DNA of 43,555 bases from a virus, in IMG/VR virus record IMGVR_UViG_3300023174_000291, positions 1-43,555 of that record. One strand, 5' to 3'. A program made the translations under genes and the position numbers. Under the pieces are notes generated by a model. It had not been told where the DNA came from. It did not search any database and saw only the letters and a list, made by a program, of their open reading frames with translations. This document shows positions 2,223 through 43,555 of the stretch, piece after piece. The number at the start of each line of letters is the position of its first letter. Position 1 is the first letter of the stretch.

Positions 2223-2786
2223 ATGACCACAATAATCGCTGTCCAGCACTTAGATAAGGTGGTGATGGGCGCAGATTCACAAACGACTGGCGCAAGTGGT
2301 CGTCGGGCTTCTCATCCACAAATGGTAAAAATTAGCGAGCGCGGAGATTACATAATTGCTGGTAGCGGCGAATGTGCGCCTTGCGATATTGCCCAGCATA
2401 TTTGGATTCCTCCAACTCCAACAACAAAAGATTGGAATGACCTTTATCATTTTATGATTGCAAAGGTTGTTCCCTCATTAAAAGCCTGTTTCAAAGAACA
2501 AGAATACAAATGGGACGCTGATGACGATGAAACTAAATTTGCCTTCTTAATCTCAATTGGCGGTGAGGTATTCGAACTCGCTGATGATTTTTCCATCAGC
2601 CTAGATTCAAAAGGATTCTATGGTGTTGGCTCAGGCTCTAGTTATGGGATAGGGGCTTTATCGGCTGGTGCCTCTTTGTCAAAGGCTCTCAAGATTGCCG
2701 CTGAAAATGACGCCTATACATCTGCGCCTTTTATTTATTTTACCCAACTCAAGCGGAAGAAAGTTGCACTATCGCCCAAGAAGTAG
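2223..2786 (+). CDS. HslV / proteasome beta-like Ntn hydrolase
   Basis: A 187-residue protein whose start, MTTIIAVQHLDKVVMGADSQTT, is typical of HslV and proteasome beta-type peptidases. After Met removal Thr1 would be the nucleophile. Asp17 in GADSQTT and Lys35 in QMVKI fill the usual catalytic roles, and HslV itself begins TTI. A later GSGSSYGIGALSAGASLSKAL matches the GSG helix region of these enzymes. Size is in the HslV range. No ATPase partner (HslU-like) is visible in the window. It follows the deacetylase gene by 24 bases and probably shares its transcript. Whether it assembles into a ring and what it cleaves cannot be told. Proteasome-like proteins are known in some actinobacteriophages. 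Confidence 0.8.
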   Translation: MTTIIAVQHLDKVVMGADSQTTGASGRRASHPQMVKISERGDYIIAGSGECAPCDIAQHIWIPPTPTTKDWNDLYHFMIAKVVPSLKACFKEQEYKWDADDDETKFAFLISIGGEVFELADDFSISLDSKGFYGVGSGSSYGIGALSAGASLSKALKIAAENDAYTSAPFIYFTQLKRKKVALSPKK

Positions 2787-8142: not shown

Positions 8143-8829
8143 CTACCCTTTCATAACTTGTAGGCTGGCAAAAGTTTCTTGACCTTGCTTCTTTTTTAAG
8201 TGAGGTATGTTATTAACCACAATACCAATTTTGTTTGTGGAAAGCGTCGCGGCTAAAAGGTCAGAGCGTTCTTGGTCTGTATATCCCGCCTCTTCAAGCG
8301 CCTCCAAGGATGGAAATACATCAGCGTGGCGGTCATTTTCTTTGTCTACCAAGTGGTCTTGGGTTCCGCCCATGGAAAAGATGATGACAAAATTTGATGG
8401 CAACTCATGGCGCTTAACCATCTCTACTTCTTTGGTGTAAGCGTAGAAAAATACATGAGGATTCTCCATAGCAATATCCATCCAAAGTAAGAAATACGCT
8501 TCAGAATAGAAATCACCCGCATCATGGATTCTTACCGATTTACCCCCTTGGTAACGCTTTGCCTTCAACTCATCACTCACCCTAGTTTTCCACTCTAGGG
8601 GATTATCAAGAGTCAATTCAAGGTTGCGTACATGAGCCGCTTTTACATTTGAAAAGTTATAGGTGCCTGAGCGGGCATAACATAAATTGGCACACACCCC
8701 CGCGTTTGGACAGGTAAGAAAATTCTTGCCGTTGGATAGTTTTGCCGCGAGCGCTGGAATCGACCAAGTGAAGATTCCATCCACTTTAAGTTCTCTGTTG
8801 CCGTTTGTAAGTAGGTATTTAATTGGCAT
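8143..8829 (-). CDS. GP88-family protein (PF17338-like)
   Basis: The start at 8829 is chosen because it overlaps the upstream stop (TAATG) and has GAGGAG in front. About 228 residues. Its signature is a Cys-rich block CPNAGVCANLCYARSGTYNF at about 41-60 (after this start), then VRIHDAGDFYSEAYFLLWMDIA and VFFYAYTKE. This matches the Gene product 88 family of mycobacteriophages and other actinophages, which has no established function. The four Cys may bind metal and the HD-GDFY block looks like an active site. It lies between the ParB-like gene and the terminase operon. Confidence 0.8.
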   Translation of the reverse strand: MPIKYLLTNGNRELKVDGIFTWSIPALAAKLSNGKNFLTCPNAGVCANLCYARSGTYNFSNVKAAHVRNLELTLDNPLEWKTRVSDELKAKRYQGGKSVRIHDAGDFYSEAYFLLWMDIAMENPHVFFYAYTKEVEMVKRHELPSNFVIIFSMGGTQDHLVDKENDRHADVFPSLEALEEAGYTDQERSDLLAATLSTNKIGIVVNNIPHLKKKQGQETFASLQVMKG

Positions 8830-10016
8830 TATTGCTCCTCTGTTGTACAAGCATCTAGCGGAATCCTAAGCAACTCAGCAATATCGTTCCAGCCATAGAT
8901 TGCGTTAGCCCATGTATTTACATCTTCAGTATGAACCCTCATATTAAATTCGCCAACTCGGATAGTGCTACGACCCACAGGAATATGCCCAGGCTTTGAC
9001 TTTCCCCCAGAAAGTATCTCGGCGACCTCTTCAGCACTAAACCCTGTCCCAACAAGATTTGTGGAGGTGAGCAATGTGTTTAATTCCTGTGAGTCGTAAG
9101 TTGCTAAATCAGATGTTCGGTTGTCCACAATCAAAATCTTTATTTCTTCAACATCATCAACATCAATCCAATGAACTGCAATCTTCTCCCAGCCTAATTG
9201 GAGCGCCGCTTGAAATGTGTGGTTTCCTGATACGCAATGCTTGGTTGCCCGATTTACCACAATTGGTCGGTATTGCCCCATTTGTGAAAGGGACTCAATA
9301 ATTGCCCCAATATCGCCTTCTCGCGGGTTTAGAGGATGAGCCGATATGTCTTTAACCGATACAGTCTCTACATCGCTAGGGAGGCTATCTGGCGGCTCTG
9401 GTAGGCGTTCTAAAGTTTCAGATTTACGCTCTGGGAATCCAAGGCGTTCTTTAATTCCGTTGATGGCTTTTGAGCGCGTCTTGCCGAACTCTTCGAACAG
9501 TTGTTCGACCCATGCTTTATAGGCATCTGCATCTATCGTGAAGCGCCAAGCGCCAATCTTTACTTCAGGGTCAGACTTTGCCTTACTTCCACCCATAGGC
9601 TCTTTTTGATTTCCTTTTATCAATCTATCAAGAGTCTCAACCTCGGAGGCGGTAAAGCCTGTTCCATCCAACTCAGGTAAAGCGCTGAGAAGGGATTTAA
9701 GAAGTGGCTCGTTGTATCCTGCTAAATCTGTTAATCGGTTATCAGCCAAGACAATTTTGCGAGCGCTTGATTCATTTACATCAATGCGCGTTATCTTGAT
9801 TTTTTTCCAGCCAAGTTTCTTCGCCGCTTTGAGTGTGTGATTACCAGCAAGTACAAAGTTTGTTCCCTCTTGAACTACGATAGGTCTGTATTGACCATGA
9901 GCCTTGAGGGAAGAAGCAATCGCATCTATATCACCACGACGGGGATTAGATGGATATGCAATCAGGGTTGAAATAGAAACAGATTCAACTCCGCTTACTT
10001 TAATGTTGGCTTTCAT
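8829..10016 (-). CDS. Tandem ParB-like nuclease-domain protein
   Basis: A 395-residue protein made of two copies of one unit. Each has a ParB/sulfiredoxin-like domain: YPSNPRRGDIDAIASSL, HGQYRPIVVQ, LAGNHTLKAAKKLGW in the first, and HPLNPREGDIGAIIESL, MGQYRPIVVN, SGNHTFQAALQLGW in the second. Each is followed by a D-NR-DLA segment and a small C-terminal module (IGAWRFTIDADAYKAWVEQL against VGEFNMRVHTEDVNTWANAI). A Gly-Asn-His replaces the more usual GHHR. The proteins may bind DNA or support a modification enzyme; ParB domains are often coupled to methyltransferases, but none is adjacent. A LexA-type palindrome lies inside the coding region. Confidence 0.82.
   Translation of the reverse strand: MKANIKVSGVESVSISTLIAYPSNPRRGDIDAIASSLKAHGQYRPIVVQEGTNFVLAGNHTLKAAKKLGWKKIKITRIDVNESSARKIVLADNRLTDLAGYNEPLLKSLLSALPELDGTGFTASEVETLDRLIKGNQKEPMGGSKAKSDPEVKIGAWRFTIDADAYKAWVEQLFEEFGKTRSKAINGIKERLGFPERKSETLERLPEPPDSLPSDVETVSVKDISAHPLNPREGDIGAIIESLSQMGQYRPIVVNRATKHCVSGNHTFQAALQLGWEKIAVHWIDVDDVEEIKILIVDNRTSDLATYDSQELNTLLTSTNLVGTGFSAEEVAEILSGGKSKPGHIPVGRSTIRVGEFNMRVHTEDVNTWANAIYGWNDIAELLRIPLDACTTEEQ
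9494..9507. promoter_or_regulatory. Second LexA-type palindrome, intragenic
   Basis: CGAACAGTTGTTCG fits CGAAC-N4-GTTCG and extends to a 16-bp palindrome (9493-9508). It lies in the linker between the two repeats of the ParB-like gene, where it encodes VEQLFEEF. Intragenic LexA sites occur in bacteria, but its coding position makes a regulatory role uncertain. Confidence 0.35.
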
Positions 10017-10048
10017 TAACCTTTACCTAACTCTCGCTAAGTAAAGGC

Positions 10049-10348
10049 TTAGACGGATGGACGGGGAGGGCGACCTCTACGGCGAATTAAGTTTCCTTGC
10101 GCGTCGTATTCTGGCTCACGGTCAATATCGTTGCGGATGATTTTGTAAATCAACTGCTCGGACACTCCCATTGCTTCAGCAATCTCTCGGTAGGTAATTC
10201 GCTGTTTGCGAAGTCGAAGAATTGTTTGTTTTCTTCGTTTGCCTAAGTCTTGAATCTGATTTTGGTGTTCTCTGATTGCGTCTGTAAGAACTTTTACATC
10301 ATTCAATCCGCGACCATCCAGTTCTGTTGCTTCTAGTATGTTACCCAT
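10049..10348 (-). CDS. Helix-turn-helix DNA-binding protein, 99 aa
   Basis: Starts at 10348 with GAGGGAACT upstream. An N-terminal helix is followed by a basic coiled segment (LGKRRKQTILRLRKQ) and a classic helix-turn-helix, ITYREIAEAMGVSEQLIYKII at about 51-71, then a basic Arg/Pro-rich tail (RRRGRPPRP) that could act as an AT-hook. The family resembles sigma-factor region 4 or small resolvase-type domains. It is probably a transcription regulator, or an accessory factor of the ParB-like protein just downstream. Confidence 0.75.
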   Translation of the reverse strand: MGNILEATELDGRGLNDVKVLTDAIREHQNQIQDLGKRRKQTILRLRKQRITYREIAEAMGVSEQLIYKIIRNDIDREPEYDAQGNLIRRRGRPPRPSV

Positions 10349-10350
10349 TT

Positions 10351-10548
10351 TTAGTTCCCTCCGAATATCTTGTCTAGTGCTTCATCAACATTATCTTCAG
10401 GGTATTCTCTGTGGATAGTCTTGAAAGTTTCTAAATCATTTTTAAGTTTTGCTTTGTGATAGGCGATTGCAATTGCAATATAAAACGGTGCCAAGAAAAG
10501 AAGCGCCACTCCCGTTCCAAAAACCGTGAATATTAAATCCCAGTTCAT
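10351..10548 (-). CDS. Small membrane protein, 65 aa
   Basis: The start overlaps the RusA-like gene end by four bases (ATGA), with GAGGAAG upstream. One transmembrane segment at about residues 6-30 (FTVFGTGVALLFLAPFYIAIA) is followed by a charged cytoplasmic-type tail with acidic residues (EYPEDNVDEALDKIF). There is no signal peptidase site. Function unknown; its place among replication genes is typical of small actinophage membrane genes. Confidence 0.7.
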   Translation of the reverse strand: MNWDLIFTVFGTGVALLFLAPFYIAIAIAYHKAKLKNDLETFKTIHREYPEDNVDEALDKIFGGN

Positions 10549-10952
10549 ATCTTCCTCTCTTTCTTTGCTCCTCGTATGTAAAGCACTAATGAATTTTTAT
10601 CATTTTGTGGTGGTAAAAATATTAACGATTTCATATACTGCGGTGAGTCATCTGGTAACACACCCGCATCTACGATTCCGTCAATTGCCGCTTTGACTGC
10701 TGGGTTACACGCCCCTACATCTTGTAACCGTCCGCCCTTTTGGTGAGGTTCGGCAGTCACACTTATCCACGACATAGGAGGTATCCTCTCAGATTTAGCC
10801 AGAAGTTCAAAAGCCGTGCGCCAAGTCTTGACCAACTCAGCCCTTGCCCATCGGTTCCCCGCTCGCTCCGCGTTTGTTGTCCACGGTCTTTGTTCCAACT
10901 CAAGGCGGTAAACCAATTGTTCTTCTTCGTCTGTTCGGCATAAGCAATACAT
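10545..10952 (-). CDS. RusA-like Holliday junction resolvase
   Basis: Residues after position 13 match the RusA pattern: YRLELEQRPWTTNAERAGNRW at the start, then a core with GRLQDVGACNPAVKAAIDGIVDAGVLPDDSPQY, which holds the acidic residues (D in LQDVGA, D in AIDG, DD in LPDDS) and the Lys expected of RusA dimers. It cuts four-way junctions, useful for debranching DNA before packaging. The start is uncertain: the ATG at 10952 lacks a clear Shine-Dalgarno, and a TTG at codon 13 in front of VYRLELE would give a more usual N-terminus. Confidence 0.75.
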   Translation of the reverse strand: MYCLCRTDEEEQLVYRLELEQRPWTTNAERAGNRWARAELVKTWRTAFELLAKSERIPPMSWISVTAEPHQKGGRLQDVGACNPAVKAAIDGIVDAGVLPDDSPQYMKSLIFLPPQNDKNSLVLYIRGAKKERKI

Positions 10953-10962
10953 AAAGTGAACA

Positions 10963-11343
10963 TTAGGCTAATGTCCATTTTGTGTCGAATCGCCGTTTTT
11001 CTCCATCATTGGTGATAATCCAAATTTTCCCTGAATTATCAATAAATGGAATTTCTTCCGCGTTTTGTATTTTGAAAAGTAGGTAGCCGTGTTGTCTGGC
11101 TAAATCCCGATTGGACTCAACCCAGCCATGACAGCCATCAACCCCAGACCCGCATAAAACAATGAGATTGGCGGGTAAATGTAGGTTTGCATCGCGACTG
11201 CCGCCCATTTGTCGAGGCGCTCTGTGATGAACTGAGAACCCAAATTGAGTGGCTCCACCATCACAACGCTCGCACTTATAGTAGGCGCGAGCCAAAACTG
11301 TAAAGCGAACTTCATCCTCAACCTTTAGTTTAGGCTTTGCCAT
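10963..11343 (-). CDS. HNH endonuclease
   Basis: A protein of about 126 residues with an HNH (beta-beta-alpha metal) core: YYKCERCDGG, then FSVHHRAPRQMGGSRD, NLIVLCGSGVDGCHGWVESN. The paired His, Asn and final His with the two Cys pairs fit a zinc-stabilised HNH nuclease. The start at 11343 (MAKPKLKVEDE) has GAGAG just before it and gives a typical short basic N-terminus. An in-frame ATG at 11430 has no Shine-Dalgarno. Phage HNH proteins may act in packaging with terminase or as mobile nucleases. Here it sits between replication genes and not beside terL. Confidence 0.85.
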   Translation of the reverse strand: MAKPKLKVEDEVRFTVLARAYYKCERCDGGATQFGFSVHHRAPRQMGGSRDANLHLPANLIVLCGSGVDGCHGWVESNRDLARQHGYLLFKIQNAEEIPFIDNSGKIWIITNDGEKRRFDTKWTLA

Positions 11344-37779: not shown

Positions 37780-38757
37780 TTAAGCGACGACTGTATCCCA
37801 GAACCAACCGAGGTCAGAAGCGATGACTTTATTATCAAAAGCCATTTCTGCTTCAATTCGGTCAGCCTTGAGGTGTTCCATACGGAACTGTGAAGTACCA
37901 ACTGTTGCTCCGAGTCCGCCTGATACACCTGTCCATGCGAACGAGTATCCAGCAGAAGGAGTTAGCAAGCCTGGGTTTGGTGCAACATGGCAAAGAAGGG
38001 CTTTCTTACCTGATGTAAATGAATACGCGGCAGTAGCACCTTCGTTGTTTGTTGCCTTGACACCCTTGGAAACGATAACGCGAGGAATATCAAACATCGC
38101 GGCTAACATATCGGCAGTAACAGTCTGTGAAGATGTGTACTTGATACGGTCTACAATGTCAGGGTGATTCTTTAGTGCGCGGAATACATCGTATCCCAAT
38201 ACTAAAGTGTTTGCTTCCATGCCAGTTGTTGAAAGAATACCTGATTTGGCATCTTCAATATCATCAATTGGGTCTGAAGCGGCGTAATCTGACCATTGCT
38301 TTACTTCGTTTGTTGAAGGAGTTCCTGAAACACCATCATAGTCGTTAGCCCAAACAGAGCCAGCGAAGAAATCTGTGTTCCATTGTACTTCTTTGCGAAG
38401 CATTAAACGACGAGTTACGAACTCTGTTGCCTCGCGTAGTGGGTTTAATGGTGTGTCTGAGTTGTAAAGAGTCTGGTCATCTACATCCTTATGGAAAGCA
38501 AATACATCTGCGCTATAAGAACCAGTTGAAAGACCGTAACCTCCACCAGCAGACTCAGTTCCACCTGCGCGGCGTTGAGCCTCGTCACGGAACCAGTCAT
38601 TTTTGGTGTAAGTAAAGAATTTGTTAGACTTTTTATCCACAGGAATTACTGGGAATACTTTGTCTGCAATAAAATTATCTTGATTTTGAAGATACGCTAC
38701 TGAAATGTTTGTCAGAATCGCATCAATATGGACTTGACCGCCCGTTGGTTGTGGCAT
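37780..38757 (-). CDS. Major capsid protein
   Basis: A 325-residue protein in the expected place after scaffold and decoration genes. It contains VHIDAILTNISVAYLQNQDN, FIADKVFPVIPVDKKSNKFF, then DEAQRRAGGTESAGGGYGLS, EFVTRRLMLRKEVQWNTDFF and ANTLVLGYDVFRALKNHPDI, with a closing FRMEHLKADRIEAEMAFDNK. These blocks match phage coat proteins of the lambda E / HK97-fold class (N-arm, P-domain, A-domain). No protease site is obvious near the N-terminus, consistent with a separate scaffold protein. A GGAGATATAACTC leader precedes the ATG. Confidence 0.88.
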   Translation of the reverse strand: MPQPTGGQVHIDAILTNISVAYLQNQDNFIADKVFPVIPVDKKSNKFFTYTKNDWFRDEAQRRAGGTESAGGGYGLSTGSYSADVFAFHKDVDDQTLYNSDTPLNPLREATEFVTRRLMLRKEVQWNTDFFAGSVWANDYDGVSGTPSTNEVKQWSDYAASDPIDDIEDAKSGILSTTGMEANTLVLGYDVFRALKNHPDIVDRIKYTSSQTVTADMLAAMFDIPRVIVSKGVKATNNEGATAAYSFTSGKKALLCHVAPNPGLLTPSAGYSFAWTGVSGGLGATVGTSQFRMEHLKADRIEAEMAFDNKVIASDLGWFWDTVVA

Positions 38758-38770
38758 GAGTTATATCTCC

Positions 38771-39160
38771 TTAGTTCGCTCTAGTTGGGTTAGCACAGTT
38801 GATGACTGCGGTAATTACATCAGAACTTGCGCCACCTGTAATGGCACTACCAAGAACATACTTAGTTGTATCTGTTGTTGTAACAACGCTTGCTTTTGCG
38901 GCGGATGTTACGCCTAATAGGTCGCCAATAGCGACGGTTGCGCCAGCGACTAACTTAGTTCCACCGACGATTAGAACTTCGGCTTCCTGTCCTGATGTTG
39001 GTGCGTTCTGCAATACACCGATTGGAATATCAGTTGCGGCTGAACAAGTAACAACTGTGTCAGTTGTACTTAATTTAACAAAAGTGTACTGAAGTGCAGA
39101 TAAATCGGCACCAGCCACTCTTGAAATTTTTACTGCATAATTATTAAATTCAAATGCCAT
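38771..39160 (-). CDS. Capsid decoration protein (DUF2190-like)
   Basis: A 129-residue protein beginning MAFEFNNYAVKISRVAGADL, with IPIGVLQNAPTSGQEAEVLI, VGGTKLVAGATVAIGDLLGV and KYVLGSAITGGASSDVITAV. PIGVLQNAP-GQEAEV and VAIGDLLGV are diagnostic of DUF2190 head-decoration proteins, which cement the capsid surface. It sits directly before the coat gene, as usual. RGTGCC-type leader with AAAGGTG. Confidence 0.87.
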   Translation of the reverse strand: MAFEFNNYAVKISRVAGADLSALQYTFVKLSTTDTVVTCSAATDIPIGVLQNAPTSGQEAEVLIVGGTKLVAGATVAIGDLLGVTSAAKASVVTTTDTTKYVLGSAITGGASSDVITAVINCANPTRAN

Positions 39161-39163
39161 GGT

Positions 39164-39946
39164 TTAGGCACCTTTCTCGGATAGGTATTGGCTGTAAAGT
39201 TCTGGATTTTTAATTGCTACATCTGCGAGCGCTTGCTCAAAAGACTTTGCAACTCCATCTTCAACAGCCGACTTTGCCATAGCGGTCATACGACCATAAG
39301 CATTGCCTTCTTTGAAGTCCGCAGATTTGCCGATTTCTGCAAAGATATTTGCTGACTCAGCCTGAGCGTTGATTGATGTAAGAACATCTTCAACTGCTTT
39401 AGCAAGGTCTGAATCAATTGAGGACAAACGACGAAGCGCTGGTCCAACTTTTTCTGCATCAAGGTTGATGTTTGCCCAACCCTTTGCTTTTTCAATGGCT
39501 TCAACATCTGCGCGAGAATCGCGCTCTGCCTGAAGTGCGGCTGTTGCCGTTTCTGCTTGCTTACGCAAATCTTCAATCATTTTGACGACTGGCTCAGGAG
39601 CGGACTTCAAGAATTCCTCTGAGGCATCTACTGACTTACCCATCATTTTAGGTTCGCCAACTTCTTCCTTAGCGGCTTCTGCCAATTTAGCCTCAAGTTC
39701 AGCAATCTTTTTCATTGCATCCTCCATGGTCATTTCAGCCTTCTCCACCTGCGCTTCAGTAGCCGTGGTTGTTGTTTCCTCCATATTGGAGTCCTCCTCG
39801 GTGAGCGTTTCGTCTAAAACCCTCTGAACTTCAGATTCGTCGGCTGATTTCATAACCAGCCAGCCTTCGTGTAGATGAGCAGGATGGTCTACCCCGCTGG
39901 TTTCTTCGATTGCAAGATTTACCATCTTACGAGTACGAGATGCCAA
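39164..39946 (-). CDS. Scaffold protein
   Basis: A 260-residue, highly charged, mostly helical protein with long coiled-coil stretches (AQVEKAEMTMEDAMKKIAEL, EAKLAEAAKEEV, RKQAETATAALQAERDSRAD). It starts with NLAIEETSGVDHPAHLHEGW, a conserved segment of phage scaffold/prohead proteins of this class. It should template capsid assembly and be removed by the XkdF-like protease. Its place right before decoration and coat genes agrees. GAGGAG precedes the ATG. Confidence 0.82.
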   Translation of the reverse strand: MASRTRKMVNLAIEETSGVDHPAHLHEGWLVMKSADESEVQRVLDETLTEEDSNMEETTTTATEAQVEKAEMTMEDAMKKIAELEAKLAEAAKEEVGEPKMMGKSVDASEEFLKSAPEPVVKMIEDLRKQAETATAALQAERDSRADVEAIEKAKGWANINLDAEKVGPALRRLSSIDSDLAKAVEDVLTSINAQAESANIFAEIGKSADFKEGNAYGRMTAMAKSAVEDGVAKSFEQALADVAIKNPELYSQYLSEKGA

Positions 39947-40046: not shown

Positions 40047-40316
40047 TTATTGATTTAGCAATACCCGAGTCTTGGCAATGGCTTGGACTAAATCAGGACA
40101 AGCCCACATAGAAAAAGGATTATCGCTCTCCCAAAAACGCGCTAATCTAAAATGAAAATCGCCTTCGTCCATTTTGCTCCAGATATAAAATGCTTGTGAA
40201 TCATGTGGCAATAAAACTGTTATACCAGCATACCCAGGCGGTGTTGTAACTCTGGATGCTTCTAAACCCATATTGGAAAGAATTTCAATAGTTACATCAA
40301 TGATTGAAGAACTCAC
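40047..40316 (-). CDS. Hypothetical protein, 89 aa
   Basis: The best start is GTG at 40316, overlapping the upstream stop as GTGA. The protein reads IIDVTIEILSNMGLEASRVT, TPPGYAGITVLLPHDSQAFY, IWSKMDEGDFHFRLARFWES. It has a small alpha/beta shape and a WACPDLVQAIAKTR end. Located in the head module between a HGNHDQ paralogue and the scaffold gene. No family recognised. Confidence 0.6.
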   Translation of the reverse strand: MSSSIIDVTIEILSNMGLEASRVTTPPGYAGITVLLPHDSQAFYIWSKMDEGDFHFRLARFWESDNPFSMWACPDLVQAIAKTRVLLNQ

Positions 40317-40792
40317 GATGGATTTTCACTTGGGTTAGGAACATATCCTGTAATTTTACCCGCGTTTTGATAAGTTCTGCCGAAATCTGGTTGTGGGCTA
40401 TACCCACCTCTTTGAGCGCGACGGGCATAATTTGTTGCGGGAGATGCTATGCGAGCAATCAACATTCTTTCAGCCATACTTAACTTACGCTGTTTCTTTG
40501 GACGACCTAAACCCATATCCATTGAGTCCATGTGTCTTGGATTATCTGCATTGTGTGGGTTATCAGACCAAGAACCATGACTTGACTGGTCATGGTCGCC
40601 ATGCTTTGCAACTTCTAAATTTGATTTTATTTCTTCAACTGCTCCATAAACAATCATCGCCGCAACGCCACTTAAATTTTGAATTCCTTTTTTATCAATT
40701 TCTAATTCAATGACTTTGAACTCTGAATCCAAAGTATCCCAAAGCGGACCTTCTCTTAATAGGTCAAGAACTTCACGCTCGGCTGATTTCAT
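40313..40792 (-). CDS. HGNHDQ-motif head-module protein, short paralogue
   Basis: Start at 40792 (AAGAAGG upstream) makes a 159-residue protein; the frame extends further up only as a shadow. Residues 1-63 match the N-terminal domain of the upstream gene (VLDLLREGPLWDTLDSEFKV, IDKKGIQNLSGVAAM), followed at exactly the same position (64-75) by HGDHDQSSHGSW. The C-terminal part is short and polar (MGLGRPKKQRKLSMAERMLI, ARRAQRGGYSPQPDFGRTYQ). The KHG-HDQ-HG-W motif is known from phage head proteins, often at a domain boundary. It is perhaps a packaging or injected protein. Confidence 0.72.
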   Translation of the reverse strand: MKSAEREVLDLLREGPLWDTLDSEFKVIELEIDKKGIQNLSGVAAMIVYGAVEEIKSNLEVAKHGDHDQSSHGSWSDNPHNADNPRHMDSMDMGLGRPKKQRKLSMAERMLIARIASPATNYARRAQRGGYSPQPDFGRTYQNAGKITGYVPNPSENPS

Positions 40793-40808
40793 GTACTGCC
40801 TTCTTGGT

Positions 40809-41684
40809 TTAGAGAGATGCGTTTTTATTGAGCGTGGACATCTTATGTCCAACTAAAGTTTCTGTCTCTTTGCCATTTTTGTAAATACGAATAAGAACTG
40901 CTGGGTCATCTTTTTCAGCCTTAATACTAAATGATGACTTTGGAATACCCAAAACGCCTTCGCGCATGATGTGTTCAACTCTGCCTCGGGCTGTTCCCCC
41001 TGATGCTTGCCAAGAAACCATGTCTCCGTTTTTAAGTGAAGTTGCTTTATTTACGCCAGAAGTTTGATTAGAAGTAATATAATCACTTACAATTTGTGCT
41101 TGTTCTTTTGAGTCTGCGCCAATATGAAAACTATGTGATTCATTTCTGCCAAGCAAGGGTATTTTTTGACCTTGCTCTGCGGTCATTCCCTTGTCGTCGT
41201 ACCGCATCCAATCGTAAACAGAAGCAACAAAAGATTTCCCAGTCGCTTTGTCCGTAAATTTAGCAGTCCATTGTTCGGTTACTTTTCTCTCATATTCATC
41301 GCCCAACATTTCCTTGCCTTTACCAAATAATTTATCTAAATTAGAAGGGGTTGTAGTTGCATCAACTCTGTGATAACTACCACCTGCGGAATCGGTTGTG
41401 CTTTTTACAGAATACTCTCCGCTTGTATTGCTTTCAGCGCTACCCGCGGCGTCGCCAGCCCATGAGCCGTGGCTTGACTGGTCATGGTTGCCGTGTTTTT
41501 TAACTTTATCTTTCATTGAATAAGCCATGTCTCGCATAGCCTTTTCAACTGTATATTTAGCGTAACCCGTGATGCCTGAGATTCCCTTTTGACTGACCTC
41601 TTCTTCAATCATCGCGTATTCGTCATCTTTCATGGTTTTCATAGGACCTTGGCGAAGTTCTTTGAGGATTTTTATATCTTTCAT
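40809..41684 (-). CDS. HGNHDQ-motif head-module protein with C-terminal HVA1/TUDOR-like domain
   Basis: A 291-residue protein in three parts: an N-terminal helical domain (1-63, ILKELRQGPMKTMKDDEYAM, VSQKGISGITGYAKYTVEK) shared with the downstream paralogue; HGNHDQSSHGSW at 64-75; a middle beta region (WTAKFTDKATGKSFVASVYD) of unknown type; and a C-terminal DUF2945/HVA1-TUDOR domain at about 216-286 (LKNGDMVSWQASGGTARGRV, DDPAVLIRIYKNGKET, LVGHKMSTL). The variable C-terminus behind a shared head recalls modular effector proteins. AAGGAAAACAAA precedes the ATG. Confidence 0.75.
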   Translation of the reverse strand: MKDIKILKELRQGPMKTMKDDEYAMIEEEVSQKGISGITGYAKYTVEKAMRDMAYSMKDKVKKHGNHDQSSHGSWAGDAAGSAESNTSGEYSVKSTTDSAGGSYHRVDATTTPSNLDKLFGKGKEMLGDEYERKVTEQWTAKFTDKATGKSFVASVYDWMRYDDKGMTAEQGQKIPLLGRNESHSFHIGADSKEQAQIVSDYITSNQTSGVNKATSLKNGDMVSWQASGGTARGRVEHIMREGVLGIPKSSFSIKAEKDDPAVLIRIYKNGKETETLVGHKMSTLNKNASL

Positions 41685-41697
41685 TTTGTTTTCCTTT

Positions 41698-42477
41698 TCA
41701 ACTTGTTTGCGCTCCGCCAGTTTCGTCTATCAATACGCCATCTTTGGTGTACTTTGGTTTTTTTTTCTTTGGATTCATTATTGTATCAACATGGACAGAA
41801 TTGACTGTGGGACCATCATCTTTTTCAACTGGTTCCATATCTACATATAGACGCTCTGCTTTACCGCCTATTGAATAACCGAGAATCTCACCGTTTTGAA
41901 TCTTCTCCCAAGCCCAAGGTTCCCAGATAACTCCAAGAAAAACGGTGTTGGCTGGATAAGTATGATTGGTTGGAATTCCAGAAATAGATGTAATCGGAAC
42001 TGTTAGTTCGTATGGGAAAGCCATAACTTCTACCCATTCGCCAGCAACAACTTCTCTATCGTGTTGTAATCGGATACGACGGTCATTAGTGCGAACATAA
42101 TCCCAAACTGCTCTTTGCAACTCATCGGCACTTGTCCATTCGCCATGAGCATCTAGGCGGTCAGGGATATACATAGCGCCAAGGGTGTAGCGCTTATCGC
42201 CTTCAGCCTTGGACATCTCATAGGTACCGATACTTTTGGTTACTTCTTTGAAAGCAGAAGGGAAGAATTTTCGAGCGCTGATGGCATCAACTTCTTCTAA
42301 GTCTGTATCTCCTAGTACCAAGACAGGCATGATTCTATCTGTTGGAATCCAGACGCCGTTGGTATCGTCCCATTCCTCTTCGGTGAAAGTCTCTTCTAAG
42401 TCATTTATGGCAAGGCGGAACAACAAGTGCGCGACGGGCATCAAATTTTGATAATAGAATCTTACAAAATAACGCAT
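41698..42477 (-). CDS. XkdF-like prohead protease
   Basis: A 259-residue protein fitting the PBSX XkdF serine-protease family: YTLGAMYIPDRLDAHGEWTS, ADELQRAVWDYVRTNDRRIR, LQHDREVVAGEWVEVMAFPY, VFLGVIWEPWAWEKIQNGEI and LGYSIGGKAERLYVDME. Likely catalytic residues are His139 in LQHD and Ser202 in GYSIGG. It would cleave the scaffold within the prohead. GAGGGGAG precedes the ATG and overlaps the end of the RelA-like gene. Its place before scaffold and coat genes is standard. Confidence 0.85.
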   Translation of the reverse strand: MRYFVRFYYQNLMPVAHLLFRLAINDLEETFTEEEWDDTNGVWIPTDRIMPVLVLGDTDLEEVDAISARKFFPSAFKEVTKSIGTYEMSKAEGDKRYTLGAMYIPDRLDAHGEWTSADELQRAVWDYVRTNDRRIRLQHDREVVAGEWVEVMAFPYELTVPITSISGIPTNHTYPANTVFLGVIWEPWAWEKIQNGEILGYSIGGKAERLYVDMEPVEKDDGPTVNSVHVDTIMNPKKKKPKYTKDGVLIDETGGAQTS

Positions 42478-42484
42478 TTGTATA

Positions 42485-43555
42485 TCACTCCCCTCTAATC
42501 GTTTCCATTATATCAACCCCAGTTGTTTTTATCAATCCCGCTTCCCGTGGAGTCTGGAAAGGCTGGAATGATTGAACTCCAATTGTCGATAATAACTGCC
42601 TATCTTCTGGGAAAGGTATGCGTCTAGCGTATCGAACCTCGCGCATATAGAGTTTGTACTTAGTCCGAGGGTCTGCCGTTTTGCTCTCAACCTTGTAAAT
42701 AGGGTGAATCTCTTTCTTAATCTCTAAAGACTTTGGCGTGTGAAGTTGTAGTTCTGCCGTCACACCGTTCTTTGTAGCCTTGATATTGATGCCTTGGTAC
42801 GGGTCGCCTTCTTTCCAAAAATTCTTTGTGCGTGGCTCAAACCCATCGGCTCTAAGTTGAGCATCTATTCTTTGCGCCGCGCTTGCATAGTCTTGTTCTG
42901 AGAAAACCATTGTGTAACGAACTGCATCGGAGACTTGTCCAGCGGCTTGTTCAAAAGTAACACCGTCTTTCATGGAGTCATCTTGAATTTTACGAGTCAA
43001 AGAGTCTGTGGACTTTATTCGGTCTTGCAATCCATCCATTGTTCCGCCAACTTTAGCGGCTAAACCAATCATTGTTTTTGTAATCTCTGGTTCAATTTTA
43101 ATGAACTGATTACGCAATGCTGTTGCTACTGCAACGGCTTGTGGGTCACGCCCTGCTTCTGGTGCAACATCGGGCGCCCTATCTGGAATAGCGCTACCGC
43201 CGCCGCCAGTAGCCCAGTTTCCGTGAGTGGACTGGTCATGGTTTCCGTGCTTCAACAAATCGCTCTTCTTTATTTCTTTGCCATTATTGCCATACTTGGC
43301 GCTATCGCTCATGGCTTTACTCTCGTAACCCTTTGCTTTTGCGTAATCCCTACTGACCTTTAGGGCTTCATCTGCATTTACCGATAAGCGATAAACGGGC
43401 AACTCTGTTCCTGGGTTATCAAAACTAAAGGCAACTGACGCCGCCCATGTGTGGTGTCCATCTACAACAAAACCATCTTTAGAAATTAAAATTCGTTCGT
43501 CTTTAGGAATTTTACCCTTCTCTGCAAACTTTTCATAAATTGCCCCTGCGCGTGA
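42485..43555 (-). CDS. ParB-like + HGNHDQ linker + RelA/SpoT-like synthetase fusion (5' end outside window)
   Basis: The frame is open from the window edge, so the N-terminus is missing; a TTG at 43402 need not be the start. The 356 visible residues begin with the end of a ParB-like domain (ILISKDGFVVDGHHTWAASV, LPVYRLSVNADEALKVSRDY). A linker with HGNHDQSTHGNW at about 103-114 follows. Then comes a RelA/SpoT-like nucleotidyltransferase: DRIKSTDSLTRKI (like RxKSxxSxxxK), SDAVRYTMVF with Asp210, YQGINIKATKNG and AELQLHT with Glu268. Asp and Glu match the catalytic pair of (p)ppGpp synthetases. Located just before the protease, where minor-head (MuF-type) proteins usually lie. Polymorphic toxins fused to MuF proteins are known; this domain order is not one I recall. 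Confidence 0.82.
   Translation of the reverse strand, partial: SRAGAIYEKFAEKGKIPKDERILISKDGFVVDGHHTWAASVAFSFDNPGTELPVYRLSVNADEALKVSRDYAKAKGYESKAMSDSAKYGNNGKEIKKSDLLKHGNHDQSTHGNWATGGGGSAIPDRAPDVAPEAGRDPQAVAVATALRNQFIKIEPEITKTMIGLAAKVGGTMDGLQDRIKSTDSLTRKIQDDSMKDGVTFEQAAGQVSDAVRYTMVFSEQDYASAAQRIDAQLRADGFEPRTKNFWKEGDPYQGINIKATKNGVTAELQLHTPKSLEIKKEIHPIYKVESKTADPRTKYKLYMREVRYARRIPFPEDRQLLSTIGVQSFQPFQTPREAGLIKTTGVDIMETIRGE

What the first reader, a model, noticed from the sequence alone, without database searches (positions are those of the whole stretch)
42485..43555. RelA/SpoT-like synthetase domain in a phage head-module protein, joined to a ParB-like domain
Seen: an open frame with DGFVVDGHHTWAAS (ParB-like), an HGNHDQSTHGNW linker, and a nucleotidyltransferase whose RxKSxxS, D-VRY and ELQLHT motifs match alarmone synthetases with their catalytic Asp and Glu. 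Established: RelA-fold enzymes act as (p)ppGpp, (p)ppApp or tRNA-pyrophosphate toxins, and MuF-class head proteins can carry toxin domains. Inference: the protein is packaged in the virion and delivered with DNA to stop host growth or translation, or to exclude rivals. The domain order ParB, linker, Rel and the place beside the prohead protease look new to me.
Basis: partly seen in the sequence, partly recalled or inferred. Interest (0 to 1): 0.88.

Follow-up and report, generated by a model that had tools for sequence, protein, structure and literature searches.

The report
Phage head-cassette alarmone synthetase with shared tag
Phages that probably infect aquatic actinobacteria carry, among their head genes, an enzyme that very likely makes the growth-stopping nucleotide alarmone, in a slot where related phages carry a zeta-type toxin kinase instead; it is tied to a short peptide tag shared by a whole set of other enzymes, which suggests an unrecognised kit of proteins delivered with the phage DNA.

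Summary
Window 42485-43555 (minus strand, N-terminus off the contig) encodes ParB-like domain, HDQxxHGxW motif, RelA/SpoT synthetase. The synthetase is closest to exported alarmone synthetases (SaEAS, PDB 8vx3) and the phage toxin Apk2. All catalytic residues are invariant in over 40 diverged relatives, and dN/dS is mostly about 0.1.

The interpretation needs changing. The protein is not MuF-class: in a relative 99% identical over a 168-bp overlap, MuF is a separate gene. No immunity hydrolase accompanies Rel in the records searched, and nearly all lack an integrase. RelA/SpoT plus ParB in one phage polyvalent protein, and RelA/SpoT-MuF fusions, are published.

What appears new: (1) The HDQxxHGxW motif recurs (458 copies, 313 ORFs, 125 loci), joining or heading ADP-ribosyltransferases, zeta-toxin kinases, acetyltransferases, metallopeptidases and Rel domains, between portal/MuF and protease/capsid genes of actinophages. 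(2) The gene just upstream of the XkdF-type protease is an exchangeable slot: of 54 loci, 41 carry Rel, 9 a zeta-type kinase, 3 neither, 1 truncated, none both.

Best reading: tagged, polymorphic, virion-delivered effectors, Rel making (p)ppApp/(p)ppGpp early in infection. Enzyme identity is well supported; packaging, injection and the tag's role are inferred.

The parts
42485..43555 (-). 3' part of the ParB-tag-Rel gene (356 aa seen; full length about 736 aa in relative L002), phrog_2859 family
   Evidence: (phrog_2859 E 4.1e-81)
43316..43555 (-). ParB/sulfiredoxin-like domain (DGFVVDGHHTWAAS), residues 1-80 of the visible ORF
   Evidence: solo homologue in phage LIMEstone1 recorded as 'confirmed structural protein'
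43205..43252 (-). HDQ tag KHGNHDQSTHGNWATG, residues 102-117; low-confidence (pLDDT < 50) in the structure model
42590..43144 (-). RelA/SpoT-type pyrophosphokinase domain, residues 138-322
42926..42928 (-). catalytic Asp210 (syn2, D-x-x-RYT); aligns with SaEAS D121, which is changed to Ala in crystal 8vx3
   Evidence: D121A construct in PMC12691689
42752..42754 (-). catalytic Glu268 (ELQLHT)
41698..42477 (-). XkdF-type prohead protease (Peptidase_S78_2); in 3 loci fused to the ParB part of the upstream protein
40809..41684 (-). tagged protein with Hva1_TUDOR (DUF2945) domain
41460..41498 (-). HDQ tag KHGNHDQSSHGSW
40313..40852 (-). tagged small protein of unknown function
40568..40606 (-). HDQ tag KHGDHDQSSHGSW
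39164..39946 (-). scaffold-like protein (phrog_13547, E 9.3e-87, function unknown); function inferred from position
38771..39160 (-). decoration / head-fibre-like protein (by position and by analogy with Arthrobacter phage Ottawa gene 99)
37780..38757 (-). major capsid protein (phrog_1005, E 7.4e-99); 53-60% identical to Arthrobacter and Microbacterium phages

Best explanation
The gene encodes the exchangeable last member of a set of HDQ-tagged effector proteins that these actinophages encode between portal/MuF and the XkdF protease. The conserved N-terminal head-associated region and the tags bring the protein into the prohead (inferred). The neighbouring protease may cut at or near the tags (inferred), and the effectors enter the new host with the DNA (inferred). 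There the Rel domain transfers pyrophosphate from ATP to the 3'-OH of an adenine and/or guanine nucleotide ((p)ppApp and/or (p)ppGpp; activity inferred from fold, invariant active site and homologues of tested activity). This drains ATP/GTP and stops host growth so the phage can take over. The ParB/sulfiredoxin-like part is a second, possibly nucleotide-hydrolysing or DNA-nicking module (inferred). Shown: fold, invariant catalytic set, purifying selection, position, tag sharing, Rel/zeta exchange. Not shown: activity, packaging, injection, cleavage.
For: Fold. Active site: R179, K181, K189, D210, R213-Y214-T215, K244, N245, W247, Y253, G255, E268, Q270, H272, T273, H284, Y287 unchanged in every homologue covering them (47 rows, 33-48% identity for most). 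Purifying selection: dN/dS 0.06-0.15 for the pairs with enough divergence. Position: Rel gene directly upstream of the XkdF protease in 41 of 42 loci holding both. Exchange: protease-proximal slot = Rel 41, zeta-type kinase 9 (3 of them called by eye from the C-terminal sequence), neither 3, truncated 1; among 21 records scanned for both families, 12 have Rel, 6 zeta, none both, Fisher p 0.0015. Tag: 458 copies in 313 ORFs, against 0-2 for each permuted motif in all held ORFs; one strand, clustered in the well-tagged records; fused domains include 12 ART, 9 SprT-like, 5 GNAT, 4 Zeta_toxin, 2 MuF, 2 prohead protease among 105 non-redundant ORFs. Virion link: the ~75-aa N-domain also occurs in a Synechococcus phage major capsid protein, a Pontimonas phage prohead protease and a lake actinophage capsid protease; the ParB domain has a solo homologue recorded as a confirmed structural protein. 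Actinobacterial host: whiB in 14 of 21 records, including the window's closest relative; capsid protein closest to Arthrobacter phages.
Against: No virion proteomics and no enzyme assay of any tagged protein was found. The tag could be a structural or assembly motif with no delivery role. Head-gene position alone does not prove packaging. The close Arthrobacter relatives have the head module without tags. The specificity residues are mixed (RYT and GxN as in Apk2, but QLHT where Apk2 has QYHT), so the product is uncertain. Tag loci were found by searching for the tag, so their counts are not a census, and related records are not independent.
Confidence: 0.6

Rival explanations
1. The protein is made late in the infected cell and acts there (host shut-off or lysis timing) without being packaged; the tag serves assembly or regulation of the head proteins.
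For: No experimental virion evidence; these look mostly like lytic phages (no integrase in 21 of 23 records), so self-toxicity late in infection would be tolerable.
Against: The N-terminal domain is shared with capsid proteins and proteases, a ParB-like solo homologue is recorded as a virion protein, and tags also occur in MuF and prohead-protease ORFs. A set of unrelated toxin-like folds sharing one tag is hard to explain by late cytoplasmic action.
Confidence: 0.2
2. MuF-type polymorphic toxin of prophages (Apk2), used for competition between lysogens, with immunity genes.
For: Rel domain homologous to Apk2; polymorphic C-termini at a head-gene slot resemble MuF toxins (PMC5576092).
Against: No MuF domain in the full-length relative; MuF is a separate gene. 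No HD_4 (Aph1-type) hydrolase in any Rel-bearing record. Downstream small genes occur with Rel and with zeta alike, so no Rel-specific partner was seen. Integrase in 2 of 23 records only, both without a Rel hit and with a single tag.
Confidence: 0.06
3. The Rel domain modifies tRNA 3' ends (FaRel2/PhRel2-like toxSAS) rather than free nucleotides.
For: Same superfamily; FaRel2 appears among the Foldseek hits.
Against: FaRel2 hits are far weaker (E 0.011) than SaEAS (6e-11); closest sequences are nucleotide-specific enzymes (SaEAS, Apk2), and RYT/GxN of Apk2 are kept (PMC12226406).
Confidence: 0.08
4. A catalytically dead or purely structural head protein that happens to keep the fold.
For: None beyond its place in the head module.
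Against: Invariant active site at 33-48% identity, low dN/dS, and replacement by an unrelated enzyme (zeta-type kinase) at the same slot.
Confidence: 0.04

Closest known systems
Apk2 (MuF-linked adenosine 3'-pyrophosphokinase toxins of Streptococcus, Mannheimia and Pasteurella prophages; PMC12226406)
   Same: Homologous catalytic domain (about 30-35% identity), C-terminal in a large phage head-cassette protein, same RYT and GxN signatures
   Different: N-terminal part is not MuF; ParB and tags present; no IapK/Aph1-type immunity seen; QLHT instead of QYHT; apparently lytic actinophages
Exported alarmone synthetases (SaEAS/SaSAS 8vx3; also the XopAD C-terminus; PMC12691689)
   Same: Best structural and profile match; synthetase domain exported from its maker in both cases if packaging is real
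   Different: Carrier is a phage head protein instead of a Sec, T7SS or T3SS signal
Polyvalent proteins of phages and conjugative elements (PMC5512222)
   Same: Several effector domains in one chain, including RelA/SpoT with DdrB-like ParB, ART, GNAT and peptidases, thought to enter with DNA
   Different: Here each domain is headed or joined by one conserved short tag, spread over many adjacent ORFs, with a fixed exchangeable slot next to the XkdF protease; the tag motif is not in that paper
T4 internal proteins / Alt with capsid targeting sequence (general knowledge; literature list)
   Same: Proposed logic: short portable peptide, diverse cargo including ADP-ribosyltransferase, prohead protease nearby
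   Different: Different sequence, 15-18 residues, often internal between domains; loading and cleavage unproven here

Membership tests
RelA/SpoT synthetase superfamily | SYNTH fold | tested here: met
   Foldseek PDB E 6e-11 to 8vx3, also Rel, SpoT, RelP and SAS1; profile E 3.3e-31
RelA/SpoT synthetase superfamily | Catalytic Asp and Glu plus ATP-binding R/K/S residues | tested here: met
   Invariant in all homologues covering these positions, S182 being T in three
RelA/SpoT synthetase superfamily | Pfam PF04607 above curated cut-off | tested here: not met
   13 bits against 27; a divergent member. This is a database threshold, not a biochemical feature
Apk2 (MuF adenosine 3'-pyrophosphokinase) | N-terminal MuF domain in the same protein | tested here: not met
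   No MuF in the full-length relative L002; separate MuF gene in L199
Apk2 (MuF adenosine 3'-pyrophosphokinase) | syn2 RYT, syn3 GxN, syn4 YH | tested here: inconclusive
   RYT and GxN kept; syn4 is LH (PMC12226406)
Apk2 (MuF adenosine 3'-pyrophosphokinase) | Downstream IapK and Aph1 immunity genes | tested here: not met
   Protease directly downstream; no HD_4 family in Rel-bearing records; IapK homology itself was not searched
Apk2 (MuF adenosine 3'-pyrophosphokinase) | Makes (p)ppApp only | not testable with these tools
   needs assay
Polyvalent protein | Two or more effector domains in one polypeptide of an invasive element | tested here: met
   ParB-like plus Rel in one frame
Polyvalent protein | Transferred into the recipient with the DNA | not testable with these tools
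   needs virion proteomics or delivery assay
ParB/sulfiredoxin | ParB/Srx fold | tested here: met
   BFVD ParB/Sulfiredoxin hits, prob 1.00, rmsd 2.1-3.1 A, E 0.06-0.08; no Pfam hit
Toxin-antitoxin toxSAS | Adjacent cognate antitoxin | tested here: inconclusive
   No PADLOC hit; no Rel-specific neighbour among the seven downstream genes compared; unknown antitoxin types not excluded
Polymorphic toxin (constant N-terminus, variable toxic C-terminus) | Exchange of C-terminal toxin domain behind a conserved N-terminus | tested here: met
   N-domain (61-66% identity) carries Rel or a zeta-type kinase
Capsid-targeting-sequence cargo (T4-like) | Tag directs protein into prohead and is cut by prohead protease | not testable with these tools
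   only position and sharing are known

The most novel reading that the evidence does not exclude
The KH-G-HDQxxHGxW tag is a portable loading (and perhaps cleavage) signal that defines a previously undescribed family of virion-delivered polymorphic effectors in actinophages, with alarmone synthetase and zeta-type kinase as two interchangeable payloads of a dedicated slot.
Probability: 0.4. Interest if true: 0.9.

Novelty: new variant of a known kind. Interest (0 to 1): 0.74.

Why it matters
If right, one short motif lets anyone pick out injected effectors of abundant but hard-to-grow actinophages from sequence alone, including many proteins with no recognisable domain. It predicts that alarmone synthesis and zeta-type kinase activity are alternative ways to hit the host at the start of infection. 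It also offers another reading of ADP-ribosyltransferases in freshwater phages, which have been read as toxins against eukaryotic grazers (PMC6802176): those that carry the tag in this cassette would act on the bacterial host.

Tried and rejected
Pfam on the Rel domain alone: sub-threshold. tblastn of the bare tag against isolated phages: no match, and no true tags in Arthrobacter, Microbacterium, Pontimonas, Synechococcus or lake actinophage head regions. Genome-contig search with the Rel alignment returned only three MuF-type prophage loci (Streptococcus, Haemophilus), no tagged ones. Foldseek of the N-terminal 320 aa (mean pLDDT 69): nothing credible. A related-looking FNPxHDExGRFT motif seen in L111 and L169 occurs only twice here, so it was not pursued. 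Literature searches for the tag sequence: none. MuF membership, prophage immunity pair and PADLOC defence identity were considered and dropped.

Full report
Observation. The open frame at 42485-43555 (minus strand) is real, 356 codons, and runs off the contig at its 5' end. Order: ParB-like domain, HDQ motif, RelA/SpoT-like domain, stop, then directly the XkdF-type protease (Peptidase_S78_2, E 3.8e-13), a tagged Hva1_TUDOR protein, small genes, a scaffold-like protein, a decoration-like protein and the major capsid protein.

The missing N-terminus. Two relatives supply it: L002 (full length, 736 aa; Rel part 73% identical) and L003, whose end overlaps the window at 166/168 nucleotides. The N-terminal 270 aa hold a conserved ~75-aa domain that tblastn also finds in Synechococcus phage S-CBS3 gp04 (annotated major capsid protein), Pontimonas phage phiPsal1 prohead protease and Actinomycetia phage DSL-LC01 capsid maturation protease. 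In the L003 record the order is SSB, portal (PF06074), MuF (PF04233, separate, untagged), then tagged proteins including an ADP-ribosyltransferase (PF03496, 5e-10), then the ParB-Rel gene.

The enzyme. Pfam RelA_SpoT is sub-threshold, but the nearest solved protein is SaEAS, an exported alarmone synthetase (8vx3; E 2.9e-10 by single sequence, 3.3e-31 by profile, Foldseek 6e-11). NCBIfam aligns it to the synthetase part of XopAD (8e-28, far below that model's full-length cut-off). In isolated phages the relatives are Apk2-type MuF proteins. The catalytic Asp210 aligns with SaEAS D121, replaced by Ala in the crystallised protein. A tag-based scan (below) brought in over 40 further Rel domains, mostly 38-48% identical to the window (33% at the lowest), all keeping the catalytic set. 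dN/dS is 0.06-0.15 for the pairs with enough divergence; the near-identical pairs give unreliable values up to 0.5. Apk2 signatures RYT and GxN are kept; the third (QYHT) is QLHT here. So the product is (p)ppApp, (p)ppGpp or both; this cannot be settled by sequence (PMC12226406, PMC12691689).

The tag. A pattern scan of IMG/VR for G-x-HDQ-xx-HG-x-W reached its limit at 120 stretches. With the other loci this gives 458 motifs in 313 ORFs of 125 loci; outside the searched letters, K-H upstream, A at +9 and G at +11 are also conserved. Permuted motifs occur 0-2 times in all held ORFs; loci were chosen by the motif, so this shows multiplicity, not a genome-wide rate. The tag lies near the N-terminus or between domains: of 353 positions in complete ORFs, 5 fall in the last fifth. 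It is low-confidence (pLDDT < 50) in the model, like a short linear motif. In the well-tagged records all tags are on one strand and mostly in one region. Among 105 non-redundant tagged ORFs Pfam finds ADP-ribosyltransferases (12), SprT-like peptidases (9), DUF3626 (8), GNATs (5), zeta toxins (4), MuF (2) and prohead protease (2). No paper held here contains the motif; Pfam has no model for it; PHROG family phrog_2859 includes it without a function.

The exchangeable slot. In 41 of 42 loci holding both, the Rel frame abuts the XkdF protease frame, with an overlap of at most 54 bases or a 4-base gap. Of 54 protease loci the upstream protein ends in Rel in 41, in a zeta-type kinase in 9 (six by P-loop motif, three more called by eye from the C-terminal sequence; Pfam Zeta_toxin 1.2e-23 and 2.9e-24 for two tested), in neither in 3 (ParB part fused to the protease), one truncated. 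In 21 records scanned for both families, 12 have Rel, 6 zeta above cut-off, none both (Fisher one-sided p 0.0015; records are related and partly fragments; the L003 fragment was counted as lacking both). The same N-domain (about 61-66% identity) precedes either payload.

Host and lifestyle. whiB in 14 of 21 records, including the window's close relative; of 14 control genomes only Corynebacterium rings. Major capsid protein up to 60% identical to Arthrobacter phages. Integrase in 2 of 23, both records without a Rel hit. No HD_4 alarmone hydrolase beside Rel. 'Aquatic' or 'freshwater' rests on recalled dataset identity and on literature, not on a tool result.

How it probably works, and what is known. 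See best explanation. Known already: RelA-like MuF toxins (PMC5576092, PMC12226406), RelA/SpoT plus DdrB-ParB polyvalent proteins in Helicobacter prophages (PMC5512222), exported alarmone synthetases (PMC12691689), ADP-ribosyltransferases in freshwater phages (PMC6802176). Apparently new: the tag as a shared module, the Rel/zeta slot, and Rel as the commonest slot payload in a group of actinophages. Packaging, cleavage and activity are inferences.

Noticed in passing
window 40809-41684 vs L002:7132-8175: The tagged TUDOR protein has its domains in swapped order: Hva1_TUDOR is C-terminal in the window and N-terminal in L002, with the tag between or before; suggests shuffling at tags.
   Followed up: no
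L089:6238-8898 and 9597-11108: Here Rel is fused behind ART-like modules in another tagged protein, while the N-domain and ParB are fused to the XkdF protease; the tag before Rel is degenerate (HFSHEQRDHGNW).
   Followed up: partly
L111:1596-3884, L169: The tag before Rel in L111 is replaced by KFNPHHDEIGRFTT, a motif that looks like a cousin (HD-x-x-G-x-aromatic) of the HDQ tag.
   Followed up: partly
L192 (Arthrobacter phage Ottawa) and L193 (Salgado): The XkdF slot of these isolates carries a gene annotated RNA ligase; the window protease matches the C-terminal part of PHROG families named RNA ligase and DNA methyltransferase, so the protease itself seems to be fused to different enzymes in different phages.
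   Followed up: no
window 2223-2786 and 8829-10016: HslV-family peptidase homologue (phrog_1040, 1.8e-26) and a separate ParB-like partition protein (phrog_8071, 5.4e-145) elsewhere in the phage.
   Followed up: no
literature PMC10202952: Cultured Nanopelagicales phages E7 and F5 differ by an 8-kb island of unrelated hypothetical proteins; it could be this tagged effector island (not tested, genomes not at hand).
   Followed up: no
L198 (LIMEstone1 ORF101): A solo ParB-like homologue of 149 aa is annotated 'confirmed structural protein', hinting that this ParB type is a virion protein in Ackermannviridae too; several hundred further records match the L002 protein, many of enterobacterial and Vibrio phages.
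   Followed up: partly
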